Positions 5,311-63,050 of a stretch of 64,000 bases of DNA are shown here, piece after piece (positions within the stretch are counted from its first letter, which is position 1; each line of letters starts with the position of its first letter). The notes below the pieces were generated by a model. The model made no database searches. It was given only the letters and a program-made list of their open reading frames with translations, and had not been told where the DNA came from. The stretch is taken from contig NZ_JAFFJX010000008.1 of NCBI RefSeq assembly GCF_016924755.1, positions 310,001 to 374,000 of the forward strand. The letters are read 5' to 3'. The position numbers were made by a program, and so were the translations under genes. Source of the stretch: Longitalea arenae (GTDB lineage Bacteria > Bacteroidota > Bacteroidia > Chitinophagales > Chitinophagaceae).

Positions 5311-5691
5311 ATGGGACCCACCACCAGCACCATAACATCGGCCCGCCAGCGGGAGATCGTAAACCTGTATGTTGCCGAGCTCGATAAACATATCGAGGAA
5401 CTAAGGGCCGGACAGGTAGAGATCATGCATGAGATCGCCGATTTTGCCAACATACTGCATATTCATCCCATCCATTTAAGCAATACGGTAAAGGAAGTGA
5501 CGGGCCGCTCGAGCTGCGACCTATTTGAAGAGCGCCTGGTTAAACTATCGAAAGAATTATTGGCTACTTCTCCCCTGTCTATTGCCGAGATAGCGCGGCA
5601 ACTTACCTATGATCCATCAAATTTTGTAAAATTCTTCAAACGCTTTACCGGTATGACGCCCAGAACTTACCGGGAAAGTATTAGTTCATAG
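5311..5691 (+). CDS. Small AraC-type helix-turn-helix protein
   Basis: 126 residues. The C-terminal two-thirds is an AraC DNA-binding domain: first helix-turn-helix near LHIHPIHLSNTVKEVTG, second near LSIAEIARQLTYDPSNFVKF, and the typical end FKRFTGMTPRTYRE. No ligand-binding N-domain is present, only about 35 residues of helix. It follows the ABC ATPase gene closely and is probably co-transcribed. The last codons and the stop (AGT TCA TAG) are already the first units of the heptamer array that follows. Confidence 0.88.
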   Translation: MGPTTSTITSARQREIVNLYVAELDKHIEELRAGQVEIMHEIADFANILHIHPIHLSNTVKEVTGRSSCDLFEERLVKLSKELLATSPLSIAEIARQLTYDPSNFVKFFKRFTGMTPRTYRESISS

Positions 5692-5800
5692 TTCAAAGTT
5701 CTAAGTTCACAGTTCTCAGTTCAAGGTTATAAGTTCATAGCTTAAAGTTCTGGATTCATAGTTCTAATTCCTAAGTTCATAGCTTAAAGTTGAGCTTGTT
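5684..5800. repeat. Degenerate heptamer array, GTTCATA/GTTCTAA family
   Basis: About sixteen degenerate 7-bp units (GTTCATA, GTTCAAA, GTTCTAA, GTTCACA, GTTCTCA and so on). The array begins inside the last two codons of the AraC-type gene and supplies its TAG stop. The same family recurs near 12240-12310, 15330-15380 and 53660-53700. Confidence 0.85.
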
Positions 5801-6196
5801 CCGGATGGTAAGTATTGCATTCAAGAACTGAAAAACTTATGAACTTACAAACTAAATAACTTGATGCTTTATGTGCCATTCTTCGCTTATGGCCTACTGT
5901 TGTATCTTGCCGGCTGCGTCTACGCATAACCTATCGCCCCTCTGCATTTCCTATAACCTATTTCTCTAAGATTCACTCTCTGCCTTAAAGAAGGCTGCAA
6001 TAAATGAATGAATGAAATTAAATATCCTGGTCCGCAGCGGTTCCTTCTGTTTCGAGGATGTTTTTTTATTGCTCATGCTTTCTTTGATTTGGCTGGTTCA
6101 TTTGACATTGAAGGTCATTCAAAACAAAGATGTGAAAATTAAGGGAAGAATTTCAAATTTTATCAACTTTTGCGTGAACGTATTAATAAGTATCAA
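5801..6196. other. Intergenic stretch without a supported gene
   Basis: A 64-codon plus-strand ORF (6012-6206) and a 47-codon minus-strand ORF (5784-5927) are the only open frames, and neither has convincing composition or context. No RNA gene was recognised. Confidence 0.5.
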
Positions 6197-6238
6197 AATT
6201 GGTTAATAAGCACCAGCTGTTGTCAATATTAACCAATT
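6197..6238. other. 12-bp inverted repeat in an AT-rich block
   Basis: AATTGGTTAATA (6197-6208) and TATTAACCAATT (6227-6238) are perfect inverted copies around an 18-nt loop. They lie at the start of an AT-rich block (to about 6470) crowded with TATCAA, TAACAA and TAGCAA motifs. This may be a hairpin, or operator/protein-binding sites upstream of the gene at 6569. Confidence 0.5.
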
Positions 6239-6396
6239 AATAGCAACCGTTATTGATTTTTATCAAGTATTATCAAATATTAGCAACATTCTTCGTTTTT
6301 TAACAACTTTAACCAATAGTTGACGAAAATGCTTTACAAATTACAAATTGTGGTTAAATGTAACAAGATTTGCTTCTTACTGACAAGTTCACTTGC

Positions 6397-6432
6397 TTTT
6401 TGTCAAATAATGTAATTATTGAATATTCTTTG
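6397..6432 (+). promoter_or_regulatory. Possible promoter for the gene at 6569
   Basis: TTTTTG (6397-6402) and TATTCTTTG (6424-6432) approximate the Bacteroidota -33 and -7 elements with 21-nt spacing, but the -7 has one base too many. Weak evidence. Confidence 0.3.
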
Positions 6433-6568
6433 AAATAATTTCTGAACAATTGCTTATTTTTAAGTACATACGCCCACCTAAATCCGGAATGCATCTTAAC
6501 CAGGTTTGGGGGCAGGCGTCTCCGGGGGATTCAATGCACAGTTATTATTATTTTTAAAAACTAACTGC

Positions 6569-7183: not shown

Positions 7184-7203
7184 TGAGTATCCCCTTCTCA
7201 ACC

Positions 7204-8640: not shown

Positions 8641-8664
8641 TGTAAAAGAGTTACAGGTTACTAT

Positions 8665-8893
8665 TGCAAGTTACCGGGTACCAGTTACCGGTTACCACGC
8701 CCTGAGCGACAGCACACAGGTTCGGGTACCAGTTACCGGTTACCAGGCCCTGAGCGACAGCACACAGGTTCGGGTACCAGTTACCAGTTACCAGTTACCG
8801 GTTTCCAGGCCGCCCTGAGCGACAGCATGCCGCCAATGCTTAGCCTGCCTTTAATTGAAGCCCCCGGCTACGGGCAACTGGTAACTGGTAATT
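8665..8893. repeat. CCAGTTA heptamer arrays with ~60-bp duplication, invading the 3' end of nuoM
   Basis: The plus strand carries runs of CCAGTTA/CCGGTTA. A ~60-bp segment including CCCTGAGCGACAGCACACAG is duplicated, with a third partial copy. TACCAGTTACCAGTT (8775-8789) has a perfect inverted partner at 8876-8890, which lies inside the nuoM coding region. The two arms therefore flank the nuoM stop at 8851 and can pair in the nuo mRNA. Confidence 0.88.
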
Positions 8894-12230: not shown

Positions 12231-12231
12231 A

Positions 12232-12445
12232 GTTTTTGGTTTATTGTTTATAGTTCTCGGTTCACAGTTCTCAATTCTAAGTTCTCAGTCCACGGTTCTC
12301 AGTTCTCAGTTAAAAATTTACGCTTCATACTTTACACTTTACATACACTGATAGATTGTATTTCATTATCACATTATCACATTATCACATTATCAAATTA
12401 TCACATTAGCTAATTAGCACATCAGCAAATCAGCACATCAGCACA
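12232..12445. repeat. Heptamer (GTTCTCA) and octamer (CATTATCA/CATCAGCA) arrays between nuoK and nuoL
   Basis: 12240-12310 is a GTTCTCA/GTTCACA heptamer run. 12362-12448 is an octamer run that changes from CATTATCA to CATCAGCA. On the coding strand the first octamer, TGATGTGC, starts with the nuoK stop codon TGA. No gene is present. Confidence 0.88.
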
Positions 12446-12751
12446 TCAGTCTTTGAGTTCTTTCAAATCTTCCACATCCATGGTCTTATGCTGATGATAG
12501 ATCTGTAACACGAGCGCCAATCCGACCGAGACCTCGGCGGCGGCCATGGCCAGGATGAACAGGAACATCACCTGTCCATCAGGTTGCTGCCATTTGGACC
12601 CTGCCGCTACAAATGCCATTCCGGCCGCATTCAGCATGATCTCTACCGAGATGAGCATGAATACTACATTCTTGCGGGTGAGCACACCCACGAGCCCCAG
12701 GGCAAATAAGACCGTGGCTACCATTAATACCATATTGACGCTATCAGTCAT
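12446..12751 (-). CDS. nuoK: NADH-quinone oxidoreductase subunit K
   Basis: 101 residues, the normal family length, with three membrane helices and the conserved glutamate in FMLISVEIMLNAAG. ATG 12751 overlaps the nuoJ stop by 8 bp. A longer open frame upstream is only the antisense-free extension through nuoJ and is not used. Its TGA stop is the first triplet of the downstream octamer array. Confidence 0.95.
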   Translation of the reverse strand: MTDSVNMVLMVATVLFALGLVGVLTRKNVVFMLISVEIMLNAAGMAFVAAGSKWQQPDGQVMFLFILAMAAAEVSVGLALVLQIYHQHKTMDVEDLKELKD

Positions 12752-15123: not shown

Positions 15124-15170
15124 GAGTAAAAAGTGATCATGTAGTTTGTATTACTGTTCCAGGTTCCAGG

Positions 15171-15262
15171 TTACACGGATACCGGATACCGGTTACCAGT
15201 TACCAGTTACCAGTTACCGGTTACCAGTTACCAGTTACCAGTTACCAGTTACCGGTTACCCG
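15171..15262. repeat. CCAGTTA/CCGGTTA heptamer array
   Basis: About twelve heptamers (CCAGTTA, with CCGGTTA variants) between nuoG and nuoH, the same family as at 8665-8893, 18119-18205 and 33355-33405. A second array, GTTCACA-type, lies at 15330-15380 and includes the nuoG stop codon. Confidence 0.9.
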
Positions 15263-15372
15263 TTTCGCGGCAACCATTTGACGCTACGCTCACATCATTC
15301 TCAATCCTTAGCCGGTGAATAACATATAATTATGAAATATGAACTTTGAACTCTTAACTGTGAACTGTGAAC

Positions 15373-18081
15373 TTATAACTTAATACTAATTATCTGAACC
15401 CATGAATTCCAGGCCATCGCCGGTACCCCTGGCAATCCCGACGGCATCAGCACTACGCCTTTGGGAATGTTTGCATGTATGCGCACCGGTAATTCATAGA
15501 GCTGTTCAAATATTTTTACAGTGATCAATGATCCGTTTACCAAACTCATCTGGTCTGCATCCAATGCCGACATGGCTATATAGGCCGCAGGTGAGCGTTC
15601 GCTGATGCCTTTCGAGTACACGCTCAATTCTTCCGACCCAAAGATCTCGTATTGCGGCAGCAAGAGCCACTTGTCAGTTCGCACCACAAATGCTTCCGGT
15701 ATATCCTTAAAATAAACCGGTGTAGCATCCCGCTTATATTCAAACAGTAGTTTACCTGCATGTTCATTCTTCAATGAACCACCTGGCTCCTCCTGGTATT
15801 TGTTTACGGCCTGGATGGAATTCCATCCCGGTGACCAGAAAAAGGGGATCAGCGGCGATGGCGGCATCCCGGAATAACCTTCCATCGTAAATGTAAAAGG
15901 CGAGTCCCCATCCTGTTTGGGTTTGGGTTCGCTCACTGCCAGGTTCGCTAACATGGCCGTGCGGCCACTGTAACGATGCGGCTCCCGGGGTAATGCTTGT
16001 CCGTTCACCCGGAAGTCACGGCGGGGCGCGGCAGTAGAGATCCCTTTCAACTGGGGCAACAATTGTTCACCCATCATCAGCACTTCTTCGGGATGACAGG
16101 GTTTATCGATAGCTGCACCTGATTGTATCAACCGCATTTTCATCAGCCATTTCCAGCTTTCCTGCATGTTCTTATTGGCAGGCACAAATACCTGGTAGAA
16201 CCGTTGGGCGCGGCCTTCATAATTTACCAGGGTGCCATCCCCTTCAGCAAAACTGGCCGCTGGTATCAGTACATCGGCATGTTGGGTAGTAGCATTATTT
16301 AATGAATCGAGCACAATACAATGCTGGCAGTTGTTGAAGAATACGTCGGTAATCTGTGCAGGCATATTGCGGTACAGGTCGTTTTCCAGCACAATGGCAG
16401 CGACGTTTTTGGCGCGGCTGGCGCGCAGCACCGCATTTTCAAATCCCGAGGCCTGCATCATAGCCAGGCCCATGCTGTTGCATTCGGGCATTACATAGGC
16501 CAGGTGCACTTCAGTAGCTGTAGCTTTGCAGGCCGCTGCAATATCGAATGCCGCCCTGATCAGGGCTTCATTATACAAACCGGCGCCGCTGATGATTACG
16601 GGGCGTTTTGCTTTTTGCAGGGCGGCGGCAATGATGGCTGCCTGGGTGCTCATTTCATCATTCAGCTGTACCGCCGGCAAAACTGTATTCAATCGCTGGG
16701 CAATGGCAAAACCCAGGCGGGCCAGATCTTCGGGCGCTTTGTGAATTATGCTGCTGCTGATCTCATCGAGCGGCGAAGCGCCGATCGTACAATTGGCCAA
16801 AAACCCTTTCTCCTGCTGCACGATCTCTTTAACGGCCGCATCGTGCCATTCGGCTATTGCCCTGTTTTCAAGCGCATGCTGCGCTGCTGTTTTCATTACG
16901 CCCTGCCGAACGGCCAATGCCATCACCGGTGCTGTATTCCAGATATCTTCGCCCAGGATCACGATGGCGTCTGAGTGCTGGATATCCTGGAGGGAAGCCG
17001 CTTTTATGACACCCGATTGCATCACTTCCTCGATCCGCCTTTCCACAAAGACCTCGTTATCGCTTATGCCCTGGTAAAAATTCTCCCTGCCTACCAGCTG
17101 CATCAGCGCTATATTACTTTCCATAGAAGCCCGCGGAGAACCAATCCCAATGACAGTATGATTGGTCAATAAAGTACGCAGATGCTCAAGCAGGCTTGTT
17201 TCATCAACTGCTTCCACTGCCTGATTGCGGATAATCGGCTGGGTGATGCGATTTTCGCTATTCACAAACTCATAACCGAAGCGCCCGCGATCGCAAAGGA
17301 AATAACCATTCACCTGGCTGTTGTAACGATTGGTGATACAGCGCAATTGCCCATACCGTTCTCCAGCGATGGTATTACATCCCACAGCACAATGATGACA
17401 AACTGAAGGCGCTGTGGTAAGGTCCCATTTCCGGGTATAATGTTCGCGTAATGTTTTGTCGGTAAATACGCCGGTCGGACAAACCTCTACCAGGTTGCCG
17501 CTGAACGGACTTTCCAGCACGCCATCGCGTTCGCGCCCGAAGTAAACATGATTGTGTGCCGCAAATACGTTCAGGTCTTTACCACCGGCATACTCATGGT
17601 AATACCGCACACACCGGTAACACTGAATGCAGCGGTTCATTTCATGATGAATGAATGGCCCCAGGTATTGATTGGTATAGGTCCTCTTTTTAAAATGATA
17701 GCGCCGGTAATCATGCCCCGTCATCACCGTCATATCCTGCAGGTGGCAACTGCCGCCTTCATCACAGACCGGGCAATCATGCGGATGATTGGTCATCAGC
17801 CATTCTATTACCTGGCTGCGAAACGCTTTGGCCGTTTTATCATTCACCGATAAATGCAATCCATCCCTGATGCCCTCCATACAGCTCATCACCAGCCGGC
17901 CCTGGGTATCGTTTTCATCCCTGAACACCTTAACGGCACATTGGCGGCAGGCGCCTACACTACCCAATGCCGGATGCCAGCAGAAATAAGGCAGATCGAT
18001 GCCCACACCCAAACAGGCTTCCAGCAGGTTCTTCCCGGCTTTTACTTCGTATTGTTTGTTATCGATGAATATGGTTGACAT
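15373..18081 (-). CDS. nuoG: NADH-quinone oxidoreductase subunit G
   Basis: 902 residues, E. coli-like length. An N-terminal [2Fe-2S] ferredoxin domain (C in YFCWHPALGSVGACRQC) is followed by the HxxxC cluster (HPHDCPVCDEGGSC), a [4Fe-4S] pair (CIQCYRCVRYYHEYAGG) and an N7-like motif (CHHCAVGCN plus a distal Cys). The molybdopterin-like domain then runs to the end. The subunit carries electrons from NuoE/F to NuoI. Its stop (TAA) falls inside the first unit of a GTTCACA heptamer array. Confidence 0.97.
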   Translation of the reverse strand: MSTIFIDNKQYEVKAGKNLLEACLGVGIDLPYFCWHPALGSVGACRQCAVKVFRDENDTQGRLVMSCMEGIRDGLHLSVNDKTAKAFRSQVIEWLMTNHPHDCPVCDEGGSCHLQDMTVMTGHDYRRYHFKKRTYTNQYLGPFIHHEMNRCIQCYRCVRYYHEYAGGKDLNVFAAHNHVYFGRERDGVLESPFSGNLVEVCPTGVFTDKTLREHYTRKWDLTTAPSVCHHCAVGCNTIAGERYGQLRCITNRYNSQVNGYFLCDRGRFGYEFVNSENRITQPIIRNQAVEAVDETSLLEHLRTLLTNHTVIGIGSPRASMESNIALMQLVGRENFYQGISDNEVFVERRIEEVMQSGVIKAASLQDIQHSDAIVILGEDIWNTAPVMALAVRQGVMKTAAQHALENRAIAEWHDAAVKEIVQQEKGFLANCTIGASPLDEISSSIIHKAPEDLARLGFAIAQRLNTVLPAVQLNDEMSTQAAIIAAALQKAKRPVIISGAGLYNEALIRAAFDIAAACKATATEVHLAYVMPECNSMGLAMMQASGFENAVLRASRAKNVAAIVLENDLYRNMPAQITDVFFNNCQHCIVLDSLNNATTQHADVLIPAASFAEGDGTLVNYEGRAQRFYQVFVPANKNMQESWKWLMKMRLIQSGAAIDKPCHPEEVLMMGEQLLPQLKGISTAAPRRDFRVNGQALPREPHRYSGRTAMLANLAVSEPKPKQDGDSPFTFTMEGYSGMPPSPLIPFFWSPGWNSIQAVNKYQEEPGGSLKNEHAGKLLFEYKRDATPVYFKDIPEAFVVRTDKWLLLPQYEIFGSEELSVYSKGISERSPAAYIAMSALDADQMSLVNGSLITVKIFEQLYELPVRIHANIPKGVVLMPSGLPGVPAMAWNSWVQIISIKL

Positions 18082-18118
18082 GAAATAAACTTGATTGCTT
18101 CGTCAAATGATATATGCT

Positions 18119-18205
18119 GTTACCAGTTACCGGTTACCGGTTACCGGGTTCCATACAATAATGCCTTAGCGCTTTACCGGCGACTGGTGACCGGCAACCG
18201 GTAAC
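18119..18205. repeat. Inverted CCGGTTA heptamer arrays between nuoF and nuoG
   Basis: GTTACCGGTTACCGG (18133-18147) faces CCGGCAACCGGTAAC (18191-18205), a 15-bp stem with one mismatch and a 43-nt loop, just downstream of the nuoF stop. It should form a stable hairpin in the mRNA between two cotranscribed genes. Confidence 0.85.
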
Positions 18206-18240
18206 TTTATACCTATATCACGTTCACTTATAATTTGCAA

Positions 18241-21902: not shown

Positions 21903-22090
21903 AGTTTCTGGTTTATTGTTTTTGGTTTATGGTTTATAGTTTTTTACAAACCACAAACAACAAACTCTTTAAAATTCCAGTTTCTGGTTTATTGTTTTTA
22001 GTTTATGTTTTCACATAGGTGGCCGTCCGACAAAAAGCGGCCAGCTGCACAGAAAGAACCATAAACAACAAACCACAAACAACAAACTCT
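21903..22090. repeat. GGTTTAT / AAACAAC direct and inverted repeats between nuoB and nuoCD
   Basis: A segment beginning CAGTTTCTGGTTTATTG occurs twice (near 21903 and 21977) and a segment ACAAACCACAAACAACAAAC also twice (near 21948 and 22068). The two kinds are roughly inverted with respect to each other. The second copy reaches the nuoB stop. Confidence 0.8.
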
Positions 22091-23930: not shown

Positions 23931-24132
23931 CTGGTTCGCAGTTCGCAGTTGGCAGTTCGCAGTAGGCAGTTGGCAATCGGTTTCAGGGAACTTGCTTATG
24001 GTCAACGTTTATCTAAATCTTAGTACAGATACCATGGCCAGCTCTTTCATTATCACTCTATCGAATTACAGCTGCTTGTCAACGCCCGGGTTGGAATTAG
24101 CACATTAGTCAATTAGCACATTAGCAAATTAA
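23931..24132. repeat. CAGTTGG heptamer array and ATTAGCAC octamer array
   Basis: 23936-23978 is a GCAGTTC/GCAGTTGG run. 24098-24131 is an octamer run (ATTAGCAC, ATTAGTCA) that starts 2 bp after the stop of the minus-strand gene at 24135. On that strand the units carry TAA. Confidence 0.8.
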
Positions 24133-28391: not shown

Positions 28392-28525
28392 GTCACTGGC
28401 AGTTGGCAGGTAGCAGTTGGCAATTCACCATTGGCAATTCACCATTGACCATTCACCATTGACCATGCAGTGGGCAGTGGGCAGTTGGCAATTCACCATT
28501 GACCATTCACCATTCACCGCTCTCT
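28388..28525. repeat. GCAGTTG and ACCATTC/ACCATTG heptamer arrays
   Basis: About eighteen heptamers in alternating blocks: GGCAGTT/GCAGTTG, then TTCACCA/TTGACCA, repeated twice. It starts at the stop codon of the sigma factor gene (28391) and fills most of the gap to the anti-sigma gene. Confidence 0.88.
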
Positions 28526-33347: not shown

Positions 33348-33354
33348 AACAGTC

Positions 33355-33402
33355 ACCGGTTACCGGTCGCCGGTTACCGGTAACTGGCGACTGGTAACCG
33401 GT
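33355..33402 (+). repeat. Strong hairpin of CCGGTTA heptamers between susC- and susD-like genes
   Basis: ACCGGTTACC plus GGTCGCC (33355-33371) and GGCGACTGG plus TAACCGGT (33386-33402) form a 17-bp stem with one G-U pair and a 14-nt loop that is itself nearly palindromic. It begins 7 bp after the susC-like stop and 20 bp before the susD-like start, and belongs to the same heptamer family as the arrays in the nuo operon. Confidence 0.88.
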
Positions 33403-33421
33403 AACCAATAACTCATCTATT

Positions 33422-35299: not shown

Positions 35300-35312
35300 C
35301 GATGAAAGCGGT

Positions 35313-35465
35313 CAAATGAGTCACATAAGTCAAATGGGTCATATTAAGTCAAATGAGTCATATAAGTCACATAGATAAAATCAGTCAGACAGGTTAAAGC
35401 GATTGCACTACTTTTTGACTATTTTGACGCTTTGCCTCTTTTGACTCATTTGACTGCTTTGACTG
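35313..35465. repeat. GTCAAATGA-type arrays in inverted pair across the stop of the DUF1772 gene
   Basis: The plus strand carries AGTCAAATGAGTCA units in 35313-35385 and the inverse TGACTCATTTGACT in 35411-35465. The pair 35347-35360 / 35442-35455 is a perfect 14-bp inverted repeat. The second arm lies in the coding region of the minus-strand gene ending at 35394 and the first arm lies beyond its stop. Confidence 0.85.
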
Positions 35466-35951
35466 CCCAATAATACAAGCCATCAATACCAGTATCAAAG
35501 CGATGGCGTTGGCGATGGTGCGAATGCGGTGCAATTGATTCCAGGGCTTTTCAAACTGCGCCCGGTGCTCACTGATCCCTTCAGGAGAAGCCGCCTGAAT
35601 ATTGAACGCATCCAGCGCATTGTTCAGCGGAACATTGCCCATAATGGTAACCCCAAAAGTGCCGATCGCATACACGAGGGTGGCAGCAAGCAAGAAATAA
35701 AAACGCATCGAAGCGGGATGGCTGTACTGCAGCCAGGTGCTCACCGGCAATAATACCAGCGTGCCCATAAAGCTCATAAAGAATAAAGGATTCAGTATTT
35801 CGCGGTTGATCGACTGCATGGCAGCCAGGTAACCGGCATCGGGTAATTTGCCCAGTCCGGCGTTTACCGAACAGGAATAGGCGTAAAACAAACCAGCGAT
35901 CAGTGCGGTGGTAAAAGCGGTGACCAGAAGAGTGATGTTGGCGAAAGTCAT
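35394..35951 (-). CDS. DUF1772-type (anthrone oxygenase-like) membrane protein
   Basis: 185 residues, four membrane helices. Typical start ANITLLVTAFTTALIAGLFY followed by YSCSVNAGLGKLPDAGYLAA and MQSINREILNP. The GNVPLNNALDA motif is in the middle. The last 23 residues (SKQSNESKEAKRQNSQKVVQ and SL) are hydrophilic, low in complexity and encoded by the GTCAAA repeat, so the tail is repeat-derived. It is probably co-transcribed with the cytochrome gene upstream (16 bp gap). Confidence 0.82.
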   Translation of the reverse strand: MTFANITLLVTAFTTALIAGLFYAYSCSVNAGLGKLPDAGYLAAMQSINREILNPLFFMSFMGTLVLLPVSTWLQYSHPASMRFYFLLAATLVYAIGTFGVTIMGNVPLNNALDAFNIQAASPEGISEHRAQFEKPWNQLHRIRTIANAIALILVLMACIIGQSKQSNESKEAKRQNSQKVVQSL

Positions 35952-36936: not shown

Positions 36937-37008
36937 ACAATTGTTTTATGAACCCAAAATTACCCGGGCGATGAAGAGAAAAATAGAACAAAAACGACAC
37001 GAAGCAAT

Positions 37009-37040
37009 GTGATAATTTGATAATGTGATAATGTGATAAT
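37009..37040. repeat. TGTGATAA octamer array
   Basis: Four units of TGTGATAA/TTTGATAA, the inverse orientation of the CATTATCA family at 12362 and 57568. It lies about 70 bp beyond the stop of the AraC-type gene at 37113. Confidence 0.75.
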
Positions 37041-37112
37041 GAAATGCCGGCAGCGGCAATGGCAGATGAAAATCTGCAAATAAGATGTACGAATCGGCAG
37101 CGTTTGGGAGCG

Positions 37113-44271: not shown

Positions 44272-44560
44272 AGCTGCCCCTGCAACCAGCAACCTGAAAC
44301 GTGAAACATGTAACCTGCAACACCAGCAACACCTGCAACCTGCAACCTGCAACCTGCAACCTGTAACCTGCAACCTACAACACCTGCAACCTGTAACCTG
44401 CAACCTGTAACCTGAAACCTGCAACCAGCAACACCTGAAACCCGCAACCTGAAACCTGTAACCTGTAACCTGCAACCTGAAACCTGAAACCTGCAACACC
44501 TGAAACCTGTAACCTGAAACCTGCAACACCTGCAACACCTGCAAGCCCGTCACTCATAAA
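44272..44560. repeat. Long CCTGCAA/CCTGTAA/CCTGAAA heptamer array
   Basis: About forty heptamers of the form CCTGNAA, with occasional decamers CCTGCAACAC. It lies between the small membrane protein and valS. On the minus strand it is open in several frames and gives repetitive ORFs with no protein character. Confidence 0.92.
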
Positions 44561-47313: not shown

Positions 47314-47944
47314 AAAAACAAAGACGGTCTCATATATCTTCAAAAGCATACTGTTCACTGCAGTATGCTTTTGTTATTTGCAGCCGCCGGCCATTGCGCA
47401 AAAACTGAACTTCGATCAGCGCATGTTGATCAATATGATGGAGAACAGAACGCCCGGCACTACCCGCTTGATGCAGGGCATATCGGATAATACGCAACTG
47501 GTGTCGGTGCTTATTCCGGCGACCGTAGTGGCAGCCGGTTTGATCGATAACAATAAAACGACGCTTAAAAAAGGATTATACCTGGCTGAATCCGCCGCAG
47601 CAGCCACCTTCATCTCTTATGGAATGAAATATTCCTTTAAACGGTCGAGGCCATTTATGGTTACACCCGGTTTAACAGCGGCCGGATCTGGCAGCAGTCC
47701 CTCCTTCCCTTCCGGTCATACTTCTGTAGCTTTCGCATCGGCTACTTCGCTCACCCTCGCATATCCAAAATGGTATGTAGCTGTACCTGCTTATACCTGG
47801 GCAGCTTCGGTAGGTTATTCGCGCATGTACCTAGGCGTACATTATCCCAGCGATGTACTGGCAGGTGCCGTCATTGGCGCCGGCAGCGCCTGGCTCATGT
47901 ACAAAGCCAATAAATGGTTGTTTAAGAAGAAACCGAATCACTAA
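47264..47944 (+). CDS. PAP2-superfamily phosphatase
   Basis: 226 residues from ATG 47264, 50 bp inside valS in another frame; no later ATG retains the signal peptide. Signal peptide or anchor (SILFTAVCFCYLQPPAIAQ). All three acid phosphatase motifs are present: K122-x6-R129-P130, P149-SGH152 and S186-R187-x5-H193-x3-D197. It is a likely membrane-associated lipid phosphatase (undecaprenyl-PP or phosphatidate type), with the active site on the periplasmic side. The stop lies in an octamer array (CTAATTAG...). Confidence 0.9.
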   Translation: MPKKRLRSLKVAFKTSKKTKTVSYIFKSILFTAVCFCYLQPPAIAQKLNFDQRMLINMMENRTPGTTRLMQGISDNTQLVSVLIPATVVAAGLIDNNKTTLKKGLYLAESAAAATFISYGMKYSFKRSRPFMVTPGLTAAGSGSSPSFPSGHTSVAFASATSLTLAYPKWYVAVPAYTWAASVGYSRMYLGVHYPSDVLAGAVIGAGSAWLMYKANKWLFKKKPNH

Positions 47945-48078
47945 TTAGCTAATTTGCTGATGTGCTAATGTATCCCGCTACTCTTAAAGCGCATGCTGCA
48001 ACATACGGGAATACACTTATATGCAATGTTTCAAAAAAACCGGCAAGTTGCAGGTTTTTGCAATGATCTTTCGTCAAC
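47938..48078. repeat. Inverse octamer array at the PAP2 stop and gap
   Basis: 47941-47970 reads as octamers TAATTTGC, TGATGTGC, TAATG, the inverse of the CATCAGCA family. ATTTGCTGATGTGCT has a perfect inverted partner in the array at 48079. The remaining ~100 bp hold no gene. Confidence 0.7.
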
Positions 48079-48545
48079 CAGCACATCAGCACATCAGCAA
48101 ATCAGCACATTGAACATTGCCTCCGCGTAAAAGTGTATCTCCATCAGCACATCAGCAAATGAGCACATTGAGTCTTGCCTCCGCGCAGAAGTGTATTTCC
48201 ATCAGCACATCAGCACATCAGCAAATCAGCACATCGAACATTGCCTCTCCGCGCAAAAGTGTATTTCCATCAGCACATCAGCAAATCAGCAAATCAGCAC
48301 ATCGAACATTGCCTCTCCGCGCAAAAGTGTATTTCCATCAGCACATCAGCACATCAGCAAATCAGCACATCGAACATTGCCTCTCCGCGCAAAAGTGTAT
48401 TTCCATCAGCACATCAGCACATCAGCACATCGAACATTGCCTCCGCGGAGAAGTGTATTTCCATCAGCACATCAGCACATCAGCAAATCAGCACATAGAA
48501 CATTGCCTCTCCGCGCAAAAGTGTATTTCCATTATCTCATTATCA
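48079..48545. repeat. Seven-copy composite minisatellite (octamer block plus 34-bp spacer)
   Basis: Each unit is 3-4 copies of octamer CATCAGCA (or AATCAGCA) followed by a ~34-bp spacer containing GAACATTGCCTCTCCGCGC and AAAAGTGTATTTC. Units begin at about 48079, 48142, 48200, 48268, 48336, 48404 and 48462, and are 58 or 68 bp long. The difference is one octamer plus a CT in the spacer. The array ends in CATTATCT/CATTATCA octamers. All three plus-strand frames are open across it, but no frame looks like protein. Confidence 0.93.
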
Positions 48546-48681
48546 CATCATCACATTAGCCTGGCCCGATTTTTTCTATACCTTCACAGCACGCGATAAG
48601 ACCACCGATTTAATTACCTATGATATCCTTTTAAAAAGAAAGGAACCAATTAACACTCTTTAATTGTTTTTTAATGATTGA

Positions 48682-53589: not shown

Positions 53590-53699
53590 GTTTTACGTTT
53601 GTCGTTTGTAGTTTGTCGTTTGTGGTTTGTCGTTTGTGGTTTGTCGATCAATAGCTAACTAACTGAACAACTTTGAACTTTGAACGGTGAACTTTGAAC
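53590..53699. repeat. GTTTGTC/GTTTGTG and GAACTTT heptamer arrays
   Basis: 53597-53650 is a run of GTTTGTC, GTTTGTA and GTTTGTG. 53668-53700 is AACTTTG/AACGGTG, whose inverse GTTCAAA directly follows the stop of the minus-strand gene at 53700. The arrays face two convergent genes. Confidence 0.88.
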
Positions 53700-56519
53700 T
53701 TATCTCCCCAACAAATTGATCGGCAAAATAAACTCCCACTGGTTCGGCCCAAGCCCTTCCACTTCCCCATCGAACAGGCGGCTGTAACGAAAACCGAAAC
53801 TCACCGGGTATTCATTCCACCATTTGGTATCGAAGAACAATTCTCCACCGGCAGACCGTAGCTGCCAGGTCGTATTCCCCCTGAAATATTGCAGTTCGGT
53901 ATAATCATAAAAGGCATTGGCGCGCACCCGCAGGAAATACACAATATTCCCAACCCCCAGATCAGGATATACCAGGGGAAAATGATAATTAAAGCCCACT
54001 TTGTACATATCGGGTAAAGTACGGGCATTCACCGCCAGGTAACCGCGCGAAAAAGGAAAGCTGTTTGAAAAGCTGTAATCGCCTACGGTGTCCCGTTTCT
54101 GATAAGCGCCTGTGATCACCAGGTTATGGGTAGGCGCCACGCCGGGCAGGTATAAGGCGCCGCTCGTTAACCATTGAAACCCGCTATAGGTATTAATGAT
54201 CGTTCTGTAACGGCTGAGCAAACTGAGCCCGTACCGCGGATAAATATGTTGCCGCGCCACCTGCGACTGCATGGTGAACTGAACCGACCCATCGGCAAAC
54301 TCGAACTGCTTGTCCGGATAACGGCCCTTGGCAAAATTCGTATAATTCACCTGGTGATGGTTTATGCCCCCCGAAACAACCAGGCGGCGATTGAAGCGGC
54401 CGCCATTGAAAGTAAAGGGGAACTGTAGCCCCAGCCGGCCATTGACCTCATTCCAGGTCTTTGTGGCCGGACTGTCATTCTCCTTGCGGTCGAAAGTGCC
54501 GGCAACGCCCAGCGTAAGGTAAGGCCACCAGCCGCCATAAATGGCCGTAGCACCCACCTCCTTGAACTTCTCATCGGTATTGTAGTTAAAATAGATCTCC
54601 GTTTGCAAGGTATTCAGCACATTCTGCCCGATGAGCGAGAACGTATAATCCGGTTCGGCAATATAGGGCCGCCAGCTGTGAAAATTGACCAGGTTAAAAG
54701 ACTTGCGGTAACGGCTGATGGGATAACTCCGCGCGGTATCAATCGGCAAAGGCTGATCCTCCTGTAAGGGATCCAGCTCATAGGCAAACAAAGGAGCAGT
54801 GAATGCTTCAGCGCTCACTGGCTGCCAGTTCTCAGGCTTTAGTTCTTCCTGCACCATATGATAACCGGCAGCCGTAAAAGCGGTATAAATGGCTTTATTG
54901 CCACTTGTGCTCCACTGGTAATTGCCGGTGCCCCTGTTGGCAGGCGTATGTAATTGGTAGATCTTCCCGTTCACCCAGGCATAAAGCTCGTCTCTCAACC
55001 TGCCCGCAGCCGTAAAGGTAATGGTATCGCCCTGTACAGCCGGAAAACCAACTACCCGCGTGGTGCGGGGAAACAGTTCTTTCAGGGAACCGTCATGAAT
55101 ATTCACCAGCGCCAGCGTGTTTACACCAGCCGCTGTACGAATGCCCGATATCACCGTTTGCTGATCAAAAAATTTAGGCTGGCTATAGAACAAGCCGGCT
55201 GGATTGGGTACTTTTTTGAGAATAGCGCCCGACGCCGCATCCAGCAAATGCAATGTGGCGGCACCACCCGGCTGTACGTCAACAGCCACGATCTGTTTCC
55301 CATCCGTTGAAATATCGGGGGCAAAATAATTTGAGCGGTGGGTAAGTGTCTGTTGCCAACCGGTTTTTAGATCCAGCACTTTCAACACACTATAATTTTT
55401 CCAGGCCCATTGTACATCGGCTTCATAGGCAGCATATACGATCTTACCATTGCGGTATGAAAAGTAATTGTCAAGCGAAATGTCTTTTGTTCTCAACCGG
55501 CTATCTGTCTTGCTGCTGAGGTCGCGGATATAAAACGCCGGTATTTTTTTATAGCTGCTTTTAACCAGCACCACGGTGTTATCGTTTATCCATTGCGGAA
55601 ACTCTTCATCGCCGGCAAAATGCCGTTGCTGCTGCGCCCAGCTGCTGACGGCGTCCCCTTCTGAAGAATCTGCATAATTTTGAAAATAGGTAATTGCATC
55701 CTGCCGGAAGCTATGATAGCCAGCCCCGCTGTATTTTTTAATCGCCCGTTGGAAAGGGTACAGCACACCGTTAAAACGGGCCGCATCGCCGGTCACCTTC
55801 TTCCAGAATTCAGGGCCGTACTTTTCACGGCCATAAGCCACCTGCATATAGCCAAGCCGGTAATGGTCGGGCACGAGATCACGCAGTGAACCATTGCGCA
55901 GTTTCATCCAGGAATAATTCTTATTGGCCAGCCATAACGACCGGTAATCGTTAAAAAAGAAAGGCAGCCGTCCCCTGCCCTGCCTGCTTTTCAATGTTTC
56001 CTGGTACACGGCATCACCTTCCCAGAACCAGTTGGGAATGGCCGCACTATTGGCCATGGCCAATCCTTCCTGGCCAAACAAATAATAAGCAACTCTTGAT
56101 AGTCCTTTCCTGAAATTATTATACTGCTGCACATGCCGGTATTCATGCAATGCCAATGTATGGTACCAGGGTAAGGTGCCCAGTTCAAATGGATTCTGCG
56201 GCGGCATCAGGTAAAACTCGCTGCGCCAGGGGCCCAATCCCACATAAGCATTGGAGATAGTGGTGCGCGGTTGCAGCACGATACTCACCTTGCGCAGCCG
56301 GCTGCCGATGGTAGGCGCTGTCTGAACCGCAAGCCTTTCCGAAGTGGCAGCAATATCAGCAGCCTGTTTTTCCAGGCCCAAACCCGAAGGGAAAATAACC
56401 CGCACGGTATCGGTATTGATCTGGTTCCATTTGGTGGAGGGGGGATGGCCACCAAACTGCTGCGCCTGCAATAAATTATATACGGATAAACAACAGATGA
56501 AAACAAAAAGCTTTTTCAT
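53700..56519 (-). CDS. Secreted gluzincin-like metalloprotease with propeller and outer-membrane beta-barrel domains
   Basis: 939 residues. Signal peptide (LFVFICCLSVYNLLQAQ). A peptidase_MA-like domain has zinc motif H125-E-Y-R-H129 and downstream Glu167 (NWFWEGDAVYQE). A WD/TolB-like propeller region (about 290-590) has repeated strands such as PAISTDGKQIVAVD-like pieces (DISTDGKQIVAVDVQPGG). The C-terminal ~320 residues alternate aromatic strands and end in an aromatic strand plus LLGR, as in a beta-barrel. Probably anchored in the outer membrane with the protease outside or in the periplasm. Family function not known to me. Confidence 0.78.
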   Translation of the reverse strand: MKKLFVFICCLSVYNLLQAQQFGGHPPSTKWNQINTDTVRVIFPSGLGLEKQAADIAATSERLAVQTAPTIGSRLRKVSIVLQPRTTISNAYVGLGPWRSEFYLMPPQNPFELGTLPWYHTLALHEYRHVQQYNNFRKGLSRVAYYLFGQEGLAMANSAAIPNWFWEGDAVYQETLKSRQGRGRLPFFFNDYRSLWLANKNYSWMKLRNGSLRDLVPDHYRLGYMQVAYGREKYGPEFWKKVTGDAARFNGVLYPFQRAIKKYSGAGYHSFRQDAITYFQNYADSSEGDAVSSWAQQQRHFAGDEEFPQWINDNTVVLVKSSYKKIPAFYIRDLSSKTDSRLRTKDISLDNYFSYRNGKIVYAAYEADVQWAWKNYSVLKVLDLKTGWQQTLTHRSNYFAPDISTDGKQIVAVDVQPGGAATLHLLDAASGAILKKVPNPAGLFYSQPKFFDQQTVISGIRTAAGVNTLALVNIHDGSLKELFPRTTRVVGFPAVQGDTITFTAAGRLRDELYAWVNGKIYQLHTPANRGTGNYQWSTSGNKAIYTAFTAAGYHMVQEELKPENWQPVSAEAFTAPLFAYELDPLQEDQPLPIDTARSYPISRYRKSFNLVNFHSWRPYIAEPDYTFSLIGQNVLNTLQTEIYFNYNTDEKFKEVGATAIYGGWWPYLTLGVAGTFDRKENDSPATKTWNEVNGRLGLQFPFTFNGGRFNRRLVVSGGINHHQVNYTNFAKGRYPDKQFEFADGSVQFTMQSQVARQHIYPRYGLSLLSRYRTIINTYSGFQWLTSGALYLPGVAPTHNLVITGAYQKRDTVGDYSFSNSFPFSRGYLAVNARTLPDMYKVGFNYHFPLVYPDLGVGNIVYFLRVRANAFYDYTELQYFRGNTTWQLRSAGGELFFDTKWWNEYPVSFGFRYSRLFDGEVEGLGPNQWEFILPINLLGR

Positions 56520-57547: not shown

Positions 57548-57614
57548 TAGAAAAACGTTTTGCCTTGTTTTACATTATCACATCATCACATTATCACATC
57601 ATCACATCATCACA
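57526..57614. repeat. Octamer arrays flanking the stops of PrsW and the acetyltransferase
   Basis: ATGTGATAAT (57526-57535, inside the PrsW gene) pairs perfectly with ATTATCACAT (57574-57583). The run CATCATCA/CATTATCA continues to 57614. On the minus strand its first unit TAATGTGA contains the TAA stop of the acetyltransferase gene at 57615. Confidence 0.88.
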
Positions 57615-58112
57615 TTAGCCGTTCAGTTTCTTTTCCATAATATAGTCTATCATAAAATACCCATTCCCAATATCAATGTCTTCTTCCTTAACAACAGTAA
57701 AGCCCAGTTTTTCATAAAAAAAGCGCGCCTTGTTAGAGCGGTTTACGTTGAGGCGTAAGGTGTGGATGCCCCCGGTTTGCAGTTGTTCAATAACGTGATC
57801 GATGAGTTTCTTCCCAATGCCCAGGCCCTGGGTGTGGGGATGCACATAGATCTTATGCAATTTGCTTATGCCTGGTTCTATGGTAGAATAAGACGCGAAG
57901 GCGACCGGCTTGCCGCCCGATTCAACGATCAGAAAGATGTGTTGCTGATCCAATAGCTGCTTACGCAAAGAAGAATTGCTGTAGATCAGTTCGAGCATAT
58001 AGGCCAGTTGGTCGGGCGACAGGATCTCTCCATAGGTTACAGGCCATATCTCCCGTGCCAGCCGTTCAATAGTTATAAGGTCTTCAACAGTTGCATAACG
58101 GATATTAATCAT
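57615..58112 (-). CDS. GNAT-family N-acetyltransferase
   Basis: 165 residues. Acetyl-CoA motif A is LHKIYVHPHTQGLGIGKKLI with the Q/RxxGxG/A loop, followed by LNVNRSNKARFFYEKLGFTV. N-terminal YATVEDLITIERLAREIW is typical of small-molecule GNATs. Substrate unknown. Its stop codon is the first triplet of an octamer array. Confidence 0.88.
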   Translation of the reverse strand: MINIRYATVEDLITIERLAREIWPVTYGEILSPDQLAYMLELIYSNSSLRKQLLDQQHIFLIVESGGKPVAFASYSTIEPGISKLHKIYVHPHTQGLGIGKKLIDHVIEQLQTGGIHTLRLNVNRSNKARFFYEKLGFTVVKEEDIDIGNGYFMIDYIMEKKLNG

Positions 58113-58132
58113 GCTGCAAATCTACACATTTG

Positions 58133-58215
58133 CACAGCACATCAGCACATCAGCACATCAGCACATTAGCACATCAGCAAATCAGCAAATCAGCACATTA
58201 GCACATCAGCAAATC
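58133..58215. repeat. CATCAGCA octamer array
   Basis: About ten CATCAGCA/AATCAGCA/CATTAGCA octamers, the same family as at 12400 and 48079, between the acetyltransferase start and the transporter stop. On the coding strand of the transporter each unit contains TGA or TAA. Confidence 0.9.
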
Positions 58216-58220
58216 TCACA

Positions 58221-58994
58221 TCATACTTCCTTTCCCATCGCAGCCAGTTTCATCTGCCTGGCGGTTTCAGGCCCGAGGTACTGCTCTATCCGCCTTTCCG
58301 CCACATAAATAACGGGTGTTAAGATCAGCGCCATGAGAAATTTATACGTATAGTTCATTACGCCAATGGCCAATATTTGCTGCCAGGTGAAAATGCCGCT
58401 GAAAGCAATGAACAATACAATATAGCTATCTACCAGCTGAGATACCACGGTTGAACCGGTTGCCCGCAGCCACACATGTTTTTCACCAGTGCGCTTTTTT
58501 ATTTTATGAAAAACGGTCACATCTACGATCTGGCTCACCAGGAAGGCTACCAGGCTGCCAATAATGATGCGCATGCCCTGTCCGAACACACTGTCAAAAG
58601 CAAGTTGCATATCTGGAACGCCCTCTTTTGTCCGGCTGCTGACCCAGAAATCGGCAGCAGGCACATGAATGGCCAGGTAAAACATCAGGAAGGCATAGGA
58701 GATCAACCCAACGGCAATATAACTGATGCGGCGCACGGCTTTAGGTCCATAAAATTCATTGATTATATCGGTCATTACAAACTCCAGCGGCCATAACAAA
58801 ACCCCGCAGGTAAGCGTAAAGGCCAGTCCGCTTTGACCGAACAGGGTGATATTGGCAGGCTGGGTATTCAGCAGCTTTTCCAGGGAGAAGAGTTTGGTCC
58901 CGATGCATTCCGCGATCAGGGCATTGGCAACAAAAAATGCAGTGAAAAATACGAACAGCCGGGTAGGTTTATCCTTAATTATAGATTGGATCAT
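58221..58994 (-). CDS. Queuosine precursor transporter (YhhQ/VUT family)
   Basis: 257 residues, about six membrane helices. Family features are FVANALIAECIGTKLFSL, LLWPLEFVMTDIINEFYGPK and GSTVVSQLVDSYIVLFIAFS. Homologues import 7-cyano- or 7-aminomethyl-7-deazaguanine for tRNA queuosine synthesis. The start overlaps the stop of the small membrane protein gene by 4 bp. An array begins within a few bases of its stop. Confidence 0.9.
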   Translation of the reverse strand: MIQSIIKDKPTRLFVFFTAFFVANALIAECIGTKLFSLEKLLNTQPANITLFGQSGLAFTLTCGVLLWPLEFVMTDIINEFYGPKAVRRISYIAVGLISYAFLMFYLAIHVPAADFWVSSRTKEGVPDMQLAFDSVFGQGMRIIIGSLVAFLVSQIVDVTVFHKIKKRTGEKHVWLRATGSTVVSQLVDSYIVLFIAFSGIFTWQQILAIGVMNYTYKFLMALILTPVIYVAERRIEQYLGPETARQMKLAAMGKEV

Positions 58995-59281: not shown

Positions 59282-59338
59282 ATAGTCAACTTCCTGTAAA
59301 ATTGCATTATTTTGCCCAACTATTAATTATTTGCAATA

Positions 59339-61978: not shown

Positions 61979-61997
61979 TCCTGCATAATGCAGTAAT

Positions 61998-62037
61998 AAT
62001 GAATGTCGAAGTGAGGCCCACTTCGACATTCATTTTT
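61998..62037 (+). terminator. Rho-independent terminator of the YfhO-type gene
   Basis: A perfect 16-bp stem, AATGAATGTCGAAGTG (61998-62013) and CACTTCGACATTCATT (62019-62034), with a 5-nt loop and TTT after it. The ATG at 61999 lies inside the stem, so the following gene must start later. Confidence 0.92.
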
Positions 62038-62064
62038 CAACACGAGAAACTGGTTACCATTAAT

Positions 62065-63003
62065 ATGACCACTCCGACTACAAGTACAGGCATTGCTATT
62101 GTTATCATTACCTATAACCGGCCCGAAGATGCGCTTGAACTCGCGCAGAACATCAGCCGCTTACAGCAGGTAACAACGCTGTGCAGCGAGGTGATCATTG
62201 TTAACAACCAATCTACGGTGTCTTATGCAGCCCTGGAAGCCTTTATAGCGCAAAACCCGCATATCCCCTTCCGCTATTTTAAAACGAACGAGAACCTGGG
62301 CGTTAGCCGCGGCCGCAATTACGCCATTCAGCAAAGCACCGCTCCTTATCTCGTATTCCTTGATGACGACGCGCTGTTCAGGAACCTCGATGCGCTGCAG
62401 TATATTCCGCAGATCTTCAATGAGTCCCCGGCGGCTACCAACCAGCGCACCGGCATCATCTCGTTCAAAGTGTATTATCATTCCACCGGCGAATTACAGA
62501 AAACCGCTTTTGCCCATAAACAGTTTGACCGGCGTAAGGACTGGCATCATTTTCAAACCGCTTATTTTGTCGGCTGCGCACATGCCATTCACCGAGATGT
62601 TTTTGACAAAACAGGCTACTACCCCACTAACTTCTTTTATGGAATGGAAGAATACGATCTCAGCTACCGCGCCATTGATGCCGGTTTTGATATCGTCTAC
62701 GACGACCGCGTAGTTATTCTGCATAAAGAATCGCCATTGGGCCGCCTGCCCAATAAAGAAAAACTGCGCGGCATGTGGGTGAATAAAAGCAAGGTTGCCT
62801 GGAAGTTTTTGCCACTGATCTATTTCATAAGCACGGCATTGATGTGGAGTTTTGAATACCTGCGTAAGAGCGGGTATCATTGGCCGGGATGGCTGAAAGG
62901 CTGGCGGGAAATATTCCGCATTCCGGCCAGCGAAACAAGAAGGCCGGTAAATAAGAAAGGCCTTAGCTATCTGAGAAAAGTAGAAGCCAGGTTGTGGTAT
63001 TGA
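62065..63003 (+). CDS. Glycosyltransferase family 2 protein
   Basis: 312 residues from ATG 62065; the in-frame ATG at 61999 falls in the terminator stem. GT-A fold with IVIITYNRPEDALELAQNI, the nucleotide-sugar DXD motif as VFLDDDALF, NLGVSRGRNYAIQQ, and an acceptor-domain motif YGMEEYDLSYRAIDAG. A C-terminal hydrophobic stretch (LIYFISTALMWSFEYL) may attach it to the membrane. Sugar donor and acceptor unknown. Its TGA stop begins a TGGTGAA heptamer array. Confidence 0.9.
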   Translation: MTTPTTSTGIAIVIITYNRPEDALELAQNISRLQQVTTLCSEVIIVNNQSTVSYAALEAFIAQNPHIPFRYFKTNENLGVSRGRNYAIQQSTAPYLVFLDDDALFRNLDALQYIPQIFNESPAATNQRTGIISFKVYYHSTGELQKTAFAHKQFDRRKDWHHFQTAYFVGCAHAIHRDVFDKTGYYPTNFFYGMEEYDLSYRAIDAGFDIVYDDRVVILHKESPLGRLPNKEKLRGMWVNKSKVAWKFLPLIYFISTALMWSFEYLRKSGYHWPGWLKGWREIFRIPASETRRPVNKKGLSYLRKVEARLWY

Positions 63004-63050
63004 TGGTGAATGGTGAATGGCCAAAGGTGAATAGTCAATGGTCAATGGCT
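63002..63050. repeat. TGGTGAA/TGGTCAA heptamer array
   Basis: Six units (TGGTGAA, TGGTCAA and variants). The glycosyltransferase stop TGA is the first triplet of the array. Confidence 0.82.

What the first reader, a model, noticed from the sequence alone, without database searches (positions are those of the whole stretch)
5684..63050. Short tandem heptamer/octamer arrays of several families begin at gene stop codons
At least fourteen genes end in, or within a few bases of, a tandem array of 7- or 8-bp units, and the array often provides the stop codon. Cases seen: the AraC-type gene (stop 5691, TAG in GTTCATAG), nuoM (8851), nuoK (12446, TGA of TGATGTGC), nuoG (15373), nuoB (22091), the T9SS gene (24135), the sigma factor (28391), DUF1772 (35394), PAP2 (47944), the metalloprotease (53700, TAA then GTTCAAA), PrsW (57547), the acetyltransferase (57615, TAA of TAATGTGA), the transporter (58221) and the glycosyltransferase (63003). 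The families differ in sequence (GTTCATA, CCAGTTA, TGATGTGC, TGGTGAA, GCAGTTG and others) but share length and position. In several families the coding-strand unit contains a stop triplet, and a 7- or 8-bp period then puts stops in all three frames. This could be a translation or transcript-end safety element, an mRNA-stability element, or selfish slippage repeats tolerated only at gene ends. Short heptameric tandem repeats (STRR) are known in cyanobacteria; I know of no description for this clade.
Basis: partly seen in the sequence, partly recalled or inferred. Interest (0 to 1): 0.72.

Follow-up and report, generated by a model that had tools for sequence, protein, structure and literature searches.

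The report
Repeat-array hairpins at gene ends
In this bacterium and its close relatives, many genes are followed, often right from the stop codon, by short stretches repeated every 7 or 8 letters that frequently come as mirrored pairs able to fold into a hairpin; similar repeats are known elsewhere, but here many unrelated versions share one layout and replace each other between species.

Summary
The arrays are real and far beyond chance: in 864 kb of this genome noncoding tandem repeats have period 7 or 8 almost exclusively. Of the 14 genes cited, 11 end within about 5 bp of an array. Stop adjacency holds outside the window at about twofold. In the nuo operon of nine congeners the same junctions carry different families; several protein ends are unchanged, so the array supplies just the stop, but in three cases it encodes a new C-terminal tail. 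Canonical terminators are rarer where arrays sit in this genome (pooled p=0.0004), not in Niastella G005. No RNA-level pairing signal was found. Best reading: slippage and fold-back arrays, REP-like, tolerated behind stops and possibly standing in for 3'-end hairpins. Rehm 2015 described the same layout for one quadruplex-forming heptamer in Xanthomonas and Nostoc, so this is a new variant of a known kind.

The parts
5682..5791 (+). GTTCATA/AGTTCAC heptamer array overlapping the stop (TAG) of the AraC-type gene
8669..8891 (-). nuoM end: GTTACCA heptamers at 8866-8891 lie inside the gene and encode the tail TSYQLPVAG; further TAACTGG arrays inside a 48-bp repeat at 8669-8808, 42-47 bp after the stop
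12252..12449 (-). nuoK to nuoL junction: TGATGTGC octamer array supplying the stop, then GAACTGA heptamer array of another family (no sequence partner found)
15155..15373 (-). nuoG to nuoH junction: GTTCACA array from the stop, then TAACTGG array
18119..18207 (-). nuoF to nuoG inverted pair GTTACCGG ... CCGGTAAC; 18110-18215 folds with z=-4.45
21904..22087 (-). nuoB to nuoCD: two GTTTGTG/CATAAAC-type pairs, first 3 bp after the stop; 21904-21970 folds with z=-4.67; 22000-22091 (which cuts off most of a right arm) z=-0.70
23934..24131 (-). TGCTAATG octamer array near the T9SS-gene stop, then TGCGAAC heptamer array before the next gene (two families)
28397..28518 (+). TGGCAGT and ATTCACC heptamer arrays after the sigma-factor gene
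33352..33406 (+). compact inverted GTTACCG array pair with a 4-nt loop between two same-direction genes; 33345-33421 folds at -42 kcal/mol, z=-8.0
35311..35466 (.). 9-bp GTCAAATGA arrays after a gene and TTTGACTC arrays inside the end of the DUF1772 gene; the L. luteola orthologue of this convergent gap has no array and, by eye, a short hairpin
37006..37041 (+). GATAATGT octamer array between same-direction genes; the L. luteola gap has a shorter octamer run plus another array
44279..44527 (+). long CCTGAAA/CCTGCAA array between divergent genes, upstream of a large gene, far from any stop
47941..48110 (+). PAP2 gene end: octamer arm overlapping the stop, spacer, inverted octamer arm
48142..48558 (+). 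CATCAGCA octamer runs inside about six copies of a 68-bp repeat
53596..53701 (.). convergent pair: GTTTGTC array and AACTTTG array, two families; folds no better than shuffles (z=-0.5)
57572..57615 (-). TGATGTGA octamer array supplying the acetyltransferase stop; other end 24 bp from the PrsW stop
58135..58223 (-). TGCTGATG octamer array 5 bp after the transporter stop, no inverted partner (z=-1.15)
63003..63048 (+). GGTGAAT heptamer array at the glycosyltransferase stop, followed at once by the spacer motif CTCGCGA

Best explanation
These are extragenic fold-back repeat arrays. Short 7- or 8-bp units grow by replication slippage; many sites acquire a second, inverted copy of the same unit, giving a hairpin-capable element of two roughly 30-bp arms and a spacer of about 40 bp. 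Several recurrent unit families coexist and displace each other. Selection places them: frameshifting periods keep them out of genes, promoters keep them out of divergent regions, a downstream start tolerates mainly A+C-rich arrays in front of it, and essential C-termini usually halt them at the stop codon, which the array then supplies; where the protein end is free, the array is translated into a short tail. Shown: period, placement, inverted pairing, polarity within the genus, family swaps, conserved C-termini in four nuo genes, array-encoded tails in two. Inferred: slippage plus fold-back copying as the origin. Also inferred, more weakly: at gene ends they replace the intrinsic terminator and may act as the transcript's 3'-end hairpin (for example after Rho-dependent termination).
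For: Period spectrum. Inverted partner at score 12 or more for 49 of 145 arrays, against 3 and 2 with complement and reverse controls; 48 of 145 also have a direct partner. 5' arm G+T-rich 53 to 3 in own paired arrays (46 to 2 without the window), 37 to 9 in congeners; a pair can count twice. Aligned elements: 44 to 5 own, 40 to 13 congeners. Element begins within 10 bp of the stop in 46 of 76 same-direction cases versus 23.0 expected; 20 of 36 versus 12.6 for elements ending 60 bp or more before the start; 44 of 72 outside the window. Octamer arms covary within loci (rho 0.75, n=12, p=0.005). Nuo junctions: different families at the same site in nine congeners (one only partly held); never at the 2-11 bp E-F, J-K, L-M junctions; none in the Chitinophaga outgroup G015. 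Ends of nuoB, CD, I and K conserved while the stop codon varies with the array; tails encoded by arrays in nuoM of this genome and G001 and nuoA of G004. L. luteola: of 76 orthologous gaps, arrays in both 17, in one only 18, in neither 41; L025:489 grows from a few scattered units to about 20. Terminators, own genome pooled: convergent 5 of 28 with arrays versus 33 of 55 without (p=0.0004); same-direction gaps of 100 bp or more 5 of 76 versus 45 of 218 (p=0.004); first convergent sample without the window 2 of 15 versus 22 of 40 (p=0.006). Only 1 of 142 arrays could form a G-quadruplex.
Against: No excess of G-U over A-C mismatches in arms (110 versus 105), so no sign that the RNA hairpin itself is selected. 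76 of 145 arrays have no partner scoring 9, and some window pairs join two families; the one folded, 53590-53702, is no better than shuffles. Terminator exclusion is not seen in Niastella G005 (convergent 3 of 7 versus 9 of 19; same-direction 100 bp or more 2 of 18 versus 13 of 57) and was only p=0.1 in my second own convergent sample alone. Polarity by position is not significant in relatives, and paired arrays of four loci of other genera lean the other way (9 to 16). Recurrent families and short shared spacer pieces (CTCGC[GT]A; AAATACA after octamer arms) fit dispersal of elements better than purely local slippage.
Confidence: 0.5

Rival explanations
1. Neutral slippage arrays with no role: they collect wherever nothing is disrupted, and the stop adjacency, polarity and terminator exclusion are by-products of constraint and insertion damage.
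For: Rapid gain and loss, arrays translated into tails of nuoM and nuoA, no RNA pairing signal, absent from the outgroup, about half unpaired, no enrichment at stops between convergent genes.
Against: Inverted pairing far above controls and missing terminators between convergent genes, where read-through should cost.
Confidence: 0.3
2. REP/MITE-like mobile hairpins, dispersed as whole elements by a trans-acting HUH (Y1) transposase.
For: Shared spacer motif CTCGC[GT]A right after the G+T arm in several families (CTCGCTA 12 vs 0.7 expected, CTCGCGA 14 vs 1.6, in 305 array-bearing gaps); empty/filled sites such as L073:8784 (11 vs about 120 bp) and L026:9572; conserved Y1 gene with HUH and Tyr in the genus, with an inverted array pair just upstream in 7 of 9 genus genomes examined, a single array in one, none in one.
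Against: Spacers otherwise mostly locus-specific in an all-against-all comparison of 237 regions; arrays are common at operon junctions of this genus anyway, so the Y1 flank is weak; none of the 21 Y1 loci with a recognisable reading frame outside the genus (23 examined) shows a flanking inverted pair, though four have some short array nearby; Y1 versus array presence over 38 named genomes only p=0.10; REP-transposase model 22 bits against a cut-off of 80.
Confidence: 0.12
3. Translation or transcript-end safety element giving stops in all frames.
For: Many units contain stop triplets and several supply the stop.
Against: 9 of 21 arrays within 15 bp of a stop have no stop triplet in the unit; in nuoM and nuoA an array lengthens the protein instead.
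Confidence: 0.03
4. [quoted passage not shown]
For: Polarity within the genus and recurring units.
Against: About ten dissimilar unit groups by eye in one genome and swaps at orthologous junctions.
Confidence: 0.05

Closest known systems
GGGNATC heptamer arrays of Xanthomonas and Nostoc (Rehm et al. 2015, PMC4692102; abstract, sections 10 and 13-16 read, other passages)
   Same: Heptamers; intergenic; under-represented between divergent genes; G-rich strand sense just after the stop, overlapping stops, antisense just before starts; 70 and 75 inverted pairs in two genomes; transcripts start or end more often at the quadruplex-capable ones.
   Different: There a G-quadruplex-capable type, 83% shared between the two Xanthomonas; here many families, periods 7, 8 and some 9, almost none quadruplex-capable, and arrays in only one of two sister species at 18 of 35 array-bearing gaps.
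TAACTGA heptamers of Beggiatoaceae, Cyanobacteria and five Bacteroidetes (MacGregor 2015, PMC4679880; abstract, sections 3 and 10 and passages read)
   Same: Heptamer arrays; 13 overlap a stop codon in Maribeggiatoa and forward repeats put stops in three frames.
   Different: Mostly just upstream of starts in Maribeggiatoa; one unit; one inverted case there.
REP elements and REPtrons (PMC3733652 and PMC8266576, passages; PMC6006769, abstract and passages)
   Same: Extragenic palindromes, high copy number; a low-copy conserved Y1 protein exists here.
   Different: REPs are 20-40 bp conserved palindromes, not tandem arrays; no proven cognate transposase here.
BrickBuilt MITE with a 23-bp minisatellite, Porphyromonas gingivalis (PMC4596501; abstract read)
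   Same: Bacteroidota, intergenic, tandem repeat inside an element with inverted ends.
   Different: 23-bp unit, one family, 19 copies, 49-591 bp from genes.
Tandem repeats of constant unit size but variable sequence in Bacillus (PMC8161180; abstract read)
   Same: Unit length held constant while sequence varies.
   Different: Units of 52 or 20-21 nt.
Foldback transposons (recalled, no call)
   Same: Inverted arms made of short tandem repeats.
   Different: Eukaryotic; no transposition shown here.

Membership tests
Heptamer simple-sequence repeats of the Rehm 2015 kind | 7-bp tandem units, intergenic, depleted between divergent genes | tested here: met
   8-bp units are as common here
Heptamer simple-sequence repeats of the Rehm 2015 kind | one strand sense near stops, antisense near starts | tested here: met
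   own genome, same-direction genes: of 21 arrays within 15 bp of a stop 17 G+T-rich, 3 A+C-rich, 1 even; 8 of 8 within 15 bp of a start A+C-rich; not significant by position in relatives
Heptamer simple-sequence repeats of the Rehm 2015 kind | G-quadruplex-forming unit | tested here: not met
   1 of 142 arrays with four G-tracts on a strand
REP / REPtron | conserved 20-40 bp palindrome with GTAG or CGTC tag | tested here: not met
   arms are 7/8-bp tandem arrays of many families; few dispersed 13-mers outside array-like sequence; tags not searched for as such
REP / REPtron | flanks a cognate TnpA_REP gene | tested here: inconclusive
   Y1 gene preceded by an inverted pair in 7 of 9 genus genomes, but arrays are common at junctions; REP_Tyr_transpos model below cut-off
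MITE | conserved termini and target-site duplication | tested here: inconclusive
   spacers mostly unrelated; nearest genome is 56% identical at four-fold sites, so duplications could not be scored
Intrinsic terminator | G+C hairpin followed by a T-tract | tested here: not met
   own array-bearing gaps mostly lack the canonical form
Subclass 1.2 TnpA_Y1 (for the aro-operon gene only) | DH[IV]H and YIKNQKEHH-like motifs, low copy number | tested here: met
   DHMH and Y(L/I)EKQEEHH or near in the 7 genus proteins aligned (W is followed by E or D, not Q); one strong match per genus genome, further ones weak; class motifs from PMC6006769; its C-terminal domain not compared

The most novel reading that the evidence does not exclude
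The orphan, domesticated HUH single-strand nuclease of subclass 1.2 (reported mainly from Cyanobacteria and Bacteroidetes, without a known cognate DNA element) acts on these inverted heptamer/octamer arrays, making a REPtron-like system whose repeats are tandem-array hairpins. Hints: the gene sits in the aro operon and is 87-94% identical across the genus with HUH and Tyr intact in the 7 proteins aligned, while four-fold sites of nuo genes are only 50-56% identical in the closest pairs; 9 of 11 Chitinophaga genomes searched have no Y1 gene and their nuo loci hold 0.4 arrays per 100 kb; a more distant relative, G011, has Phe at the Tyr position and 1 array in 120 kb, while Flavitalea keeps Tyr and has 7.5 per 100 kb, though none at its nuo locus. 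Association over 38 named genomes is only p=0.10.
Probability: 0.1. Interest if true: 0.85.

Novelty: new variant of a known kind. Interest (0 to 1): 0.5.

Why it matters
Rehm et al. looked at this layout for a quadruplex-forming heptamer. Here many families that cannot form quadruplexes show the same layout, so quadruplexes cannot be the general cause; the layout goes with the 7/8-bp period and the inverted pairing. The nuo operon of ten Longitalea/Niastella genomes is a natural experiment: same junctions, different repeat families, several protein ends unchanged and a few lengthened by translated repeats. If the terminator exclusion holds in RNA data, bacteria can swap one 3'-end hairpin for another of unrelated sequence within a genus.

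Tried and rejected
G-quadruplex cause: rejected, 1 of 142 arrays capable. Known RNA family: Rfam at gathering threshold gave only a tRNA in the window. RNA-hairpin selection by G-U versus A-C mismatches: no signal, first 53 vs 44, then 110 vs 105. Background strand composition as the cause of polarity: rejected, G+T 0.46-0.52 outside arrays. Conserved mobile core by all-against-all spacer BLAST: mostly unrelated spacers; the short motif CTCGC[GT]A survives (4441 7-mers tested). Orthologous terminator/array swaps between the two Longitalea: too few to judge. My first wording that arrays never lengthen a protein was wrong: one search shows array-encoded tails.

Weak points: gene calls came from my own Markov caller, starts less certain than stops; family names are my grouping by eye. 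A combined-edge count for convergent genes (15 of 48) came from a true/false addition slip and is not used; the separate counts are 11 and 14 of 24. In one search the L216 reading frame was picked with a late start; its Phe was read. G004 and G009 Y1 proteins were not in the alignment, and G008 was not examined for Y1 flanks. That the aligned Tyr is the catalytic one is recalled; one search shows only that PDB 2xo6 has Phe where the other ISDra2 chains have Tyr.
Full report
WHAT WAS CHECKED. The window is contig 38, bases 310001-374000, of a 7.28-Mb genome in 40 contigs. I sampled 40 stretches of 20 kb at regular spacing plus the window (864 kb), called 637 genes with a self-trained Markov model, and later added 90 kb and 400 kb.

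THE ARRAYS ARE REAL. At score threshold 14 the sample holds 43 noncoding arrays of period 7 and 39 of period 8, two at 9 and none at 4-6 or 10-13; shuffled noncoding DNA gives none at 7 or 8; coding DNA holds 0 and 1. Without the window the figures are 27 and 29 in 800 kb. One heptamer pattern alone occurs 657 times genome-wide against 19 for the reversed control, the octamer pattern 188 times against 0; overlapping matches within one array count separately. Density is 0.27 arrays per kb between divergent genes, 1.14 between same-direction genes and 0.97 between convergent genes.

THE STOP-CODON CLAIM. Eleven of the 14 cited genes fit (with for the sigma gene). In the sample 42 of 637 stops and 13 of 637 starts lie within 10 bp of an array; outside the window 31 and 11 of 584. 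A first permutation was modest (19 of 92 versus 10.7; the largest of 2000 shuffles reached 22). With period 9 and more sequence it is 24 of 115 versus 12.4 (p=0.001), without the window 17 of 88 versus 9.5 (p=0.01), and in congeners 32 of 103 versus 13.5 (none of 2000). Convergent regions show no such attraction, so part of the effect may be repulsion from starts.

THE MISSED ARCHITECTURE. Distances from the stop are two-peaked, near 0 and near 70-110 bp, and reading the regions shows inverted pairs. A reverse-complement partner scoring 12 or more lies in the flank of 49 of 145 arrays, against 3 and 2 for the complement and reverse controls; 76 of 145 have none scoring 9. Where whole elements can be aligned (76 between same-direction, 24 between convergent and 6 between divergent genes, own and congeners), the median arm is 31 bp and the median spacer 39.5 bp, and the first arm begins within 10 bp of the stop in 46 of 76 against 23.0 expected. 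The first arm is G+T-rich in 44 against 5 own elements and 40 against 13 in congeners; in four loci of other genera the paired arrays lean the other way, 9 to 16, so the polarity is a property of this genus. Three window elements fold far better than shuffles (z -8.0, -4.5, -4.7); a two-family pair and a single array do not (z -0.5, -1.15), nor does a stretch I cut short (z -0.7).

EVOLUTION. In the nuo operon of nine congeners (one only partly held) the same junctions carry different unit families (for example nuoF-nuoG: GTTACCG here, GTTACAG in L. luteola), while the short E-F, J-K and L-M junctions (2-11 bp) never carry one; the Chitinophaga outgroup G015 has junctions of 70 bp or less without arrays. 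The last residues are identical or nearly so in nuoCD (10 of 10 ADIDR), nuoI (9 of 9 HSLLP), nuoK and nuoB, while the stop codon is TAA, TAG or TGA according to what follows: there the array supplies the stop and nothing else. Elsewhere it goes further. NuoM of this genome and of G001 ends in a tail containing YQLPVAG read from GTTACCA/GTTGCC heptamers, and nuoA of G004 ends in SRQSAIGNRQ read from TCGGCAA heptamers; other congeners lack these tails. Against L. luteola, 76 orthologous gaps gave 17 with arrays in both, 18 in one, 41 in neither. Four-fold sites are only 56% identical between the two, so spacers need not align; that limits any argument from spacer differences. Nuo-centred loci hold 44 arrays per 100 kb in Longitalea (one locus), 33 in Niastella (7 loci), 26 in Pinibacter (2) and 0.4 in Chitinophaga (12).

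FUNCTION. Between convergent genes of this genome a canonical terminator is found in 2 of 19 array gaps and 23 of 41 others (p=0.0008), without the window 2 of 15 and 22 of 40 (p=0.006); in a second sample 3 of 9 and 10 of 14 (p=0.1); in Niastella G005 3 of 7 and 9 of 19 (p=1). Pooled own counts are 5 of 28 versus 33 of 55 (p=0.0004) and, in same-direction gaps of 100 bp or more, 5 of 76 versus 45 of 218 (p=0.004). This fits substitution, but also damage by arrays landing on terminators. The arms show no G-U excess (110 versus 105).

ORIGIN. Growth in place is visible at L025:489 and L026:6017. Octamer arms covary within loci (12 loci). Yet families recur genome-wide, a short spacer motif CTCGC[GT]A follows the first arm in several families, and octamer arms are often followed by AAATACA (by eye), so some dispersal is likely. 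A conserved Y1 gene between a DAHP synthase-chorismate mutase gene and the DHQ synthase gene is a candidate agent. PDB 2xo6 carries Phe where the query's Tyr117 and the other ISDra2 chains carry Tyr; that this Tyr is the catalytic one is recalled. The link to arrays is unproven, and outside the genus none of the Y1 loci examined has a flanking inverted pair.

PRIOR WORK. Rehm et al. 2015 had already described this placement and the inverted pairs for one heptamer type; MacGregor 2015 heptamers in Bacteroidetes. I therefore rate this a new variant of a known kind.

Noticed in passing
window 8866-8891; L053 and L058 (nuoM of G001, nuoA of G004): Heptamer arrays translated into species-specific C-terminal tails of complex I subunits (YQLPVAG in nuoM of two species, SRQSAIGNRQ in nuoA of one).
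   Followed up: partly
L050:1474-1902 (G000:C40:99292-99627): IS200-like HUH (Y1) gene lodged between the DAHP synthase-chorismate mutase gene and the DHQ synthase gene, 87-94% identical in congeners, same place in G011 and Flavitalea; G011 has Phe at the Tyr position.
   Followed up: partly
window 48142-48550: About six copies of a 68-bp repeat containing octamer runs, so arrays can be carried into a larger tandem repeat.
   Followed up: no
window 8675-8794: 48-bp repeat (2.5 copies) holding TAACTGG runs after nuoM.
   Followed up: no
L073:7438-7576 and its L080 orthologue: Spacer of an octamer pair almost unchanged between two species whose four-fold sites are 56% identical, which suggests constraint on that spacer.
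   Followed up: no
L046:5894, L046:10115, L047:3534: A short piece like GATCCCGCAGAGCGGGACAAGTTGTG repeated inside octamer regions, looking like a separate small dispersed hairpin.
   Followed up: no
L226-L233 (Flavitalea): The eight arrays printed there all belong to one AGCTTGCA-type family (12 counted), unlike the many families in the window genome.
   Followed up: partly
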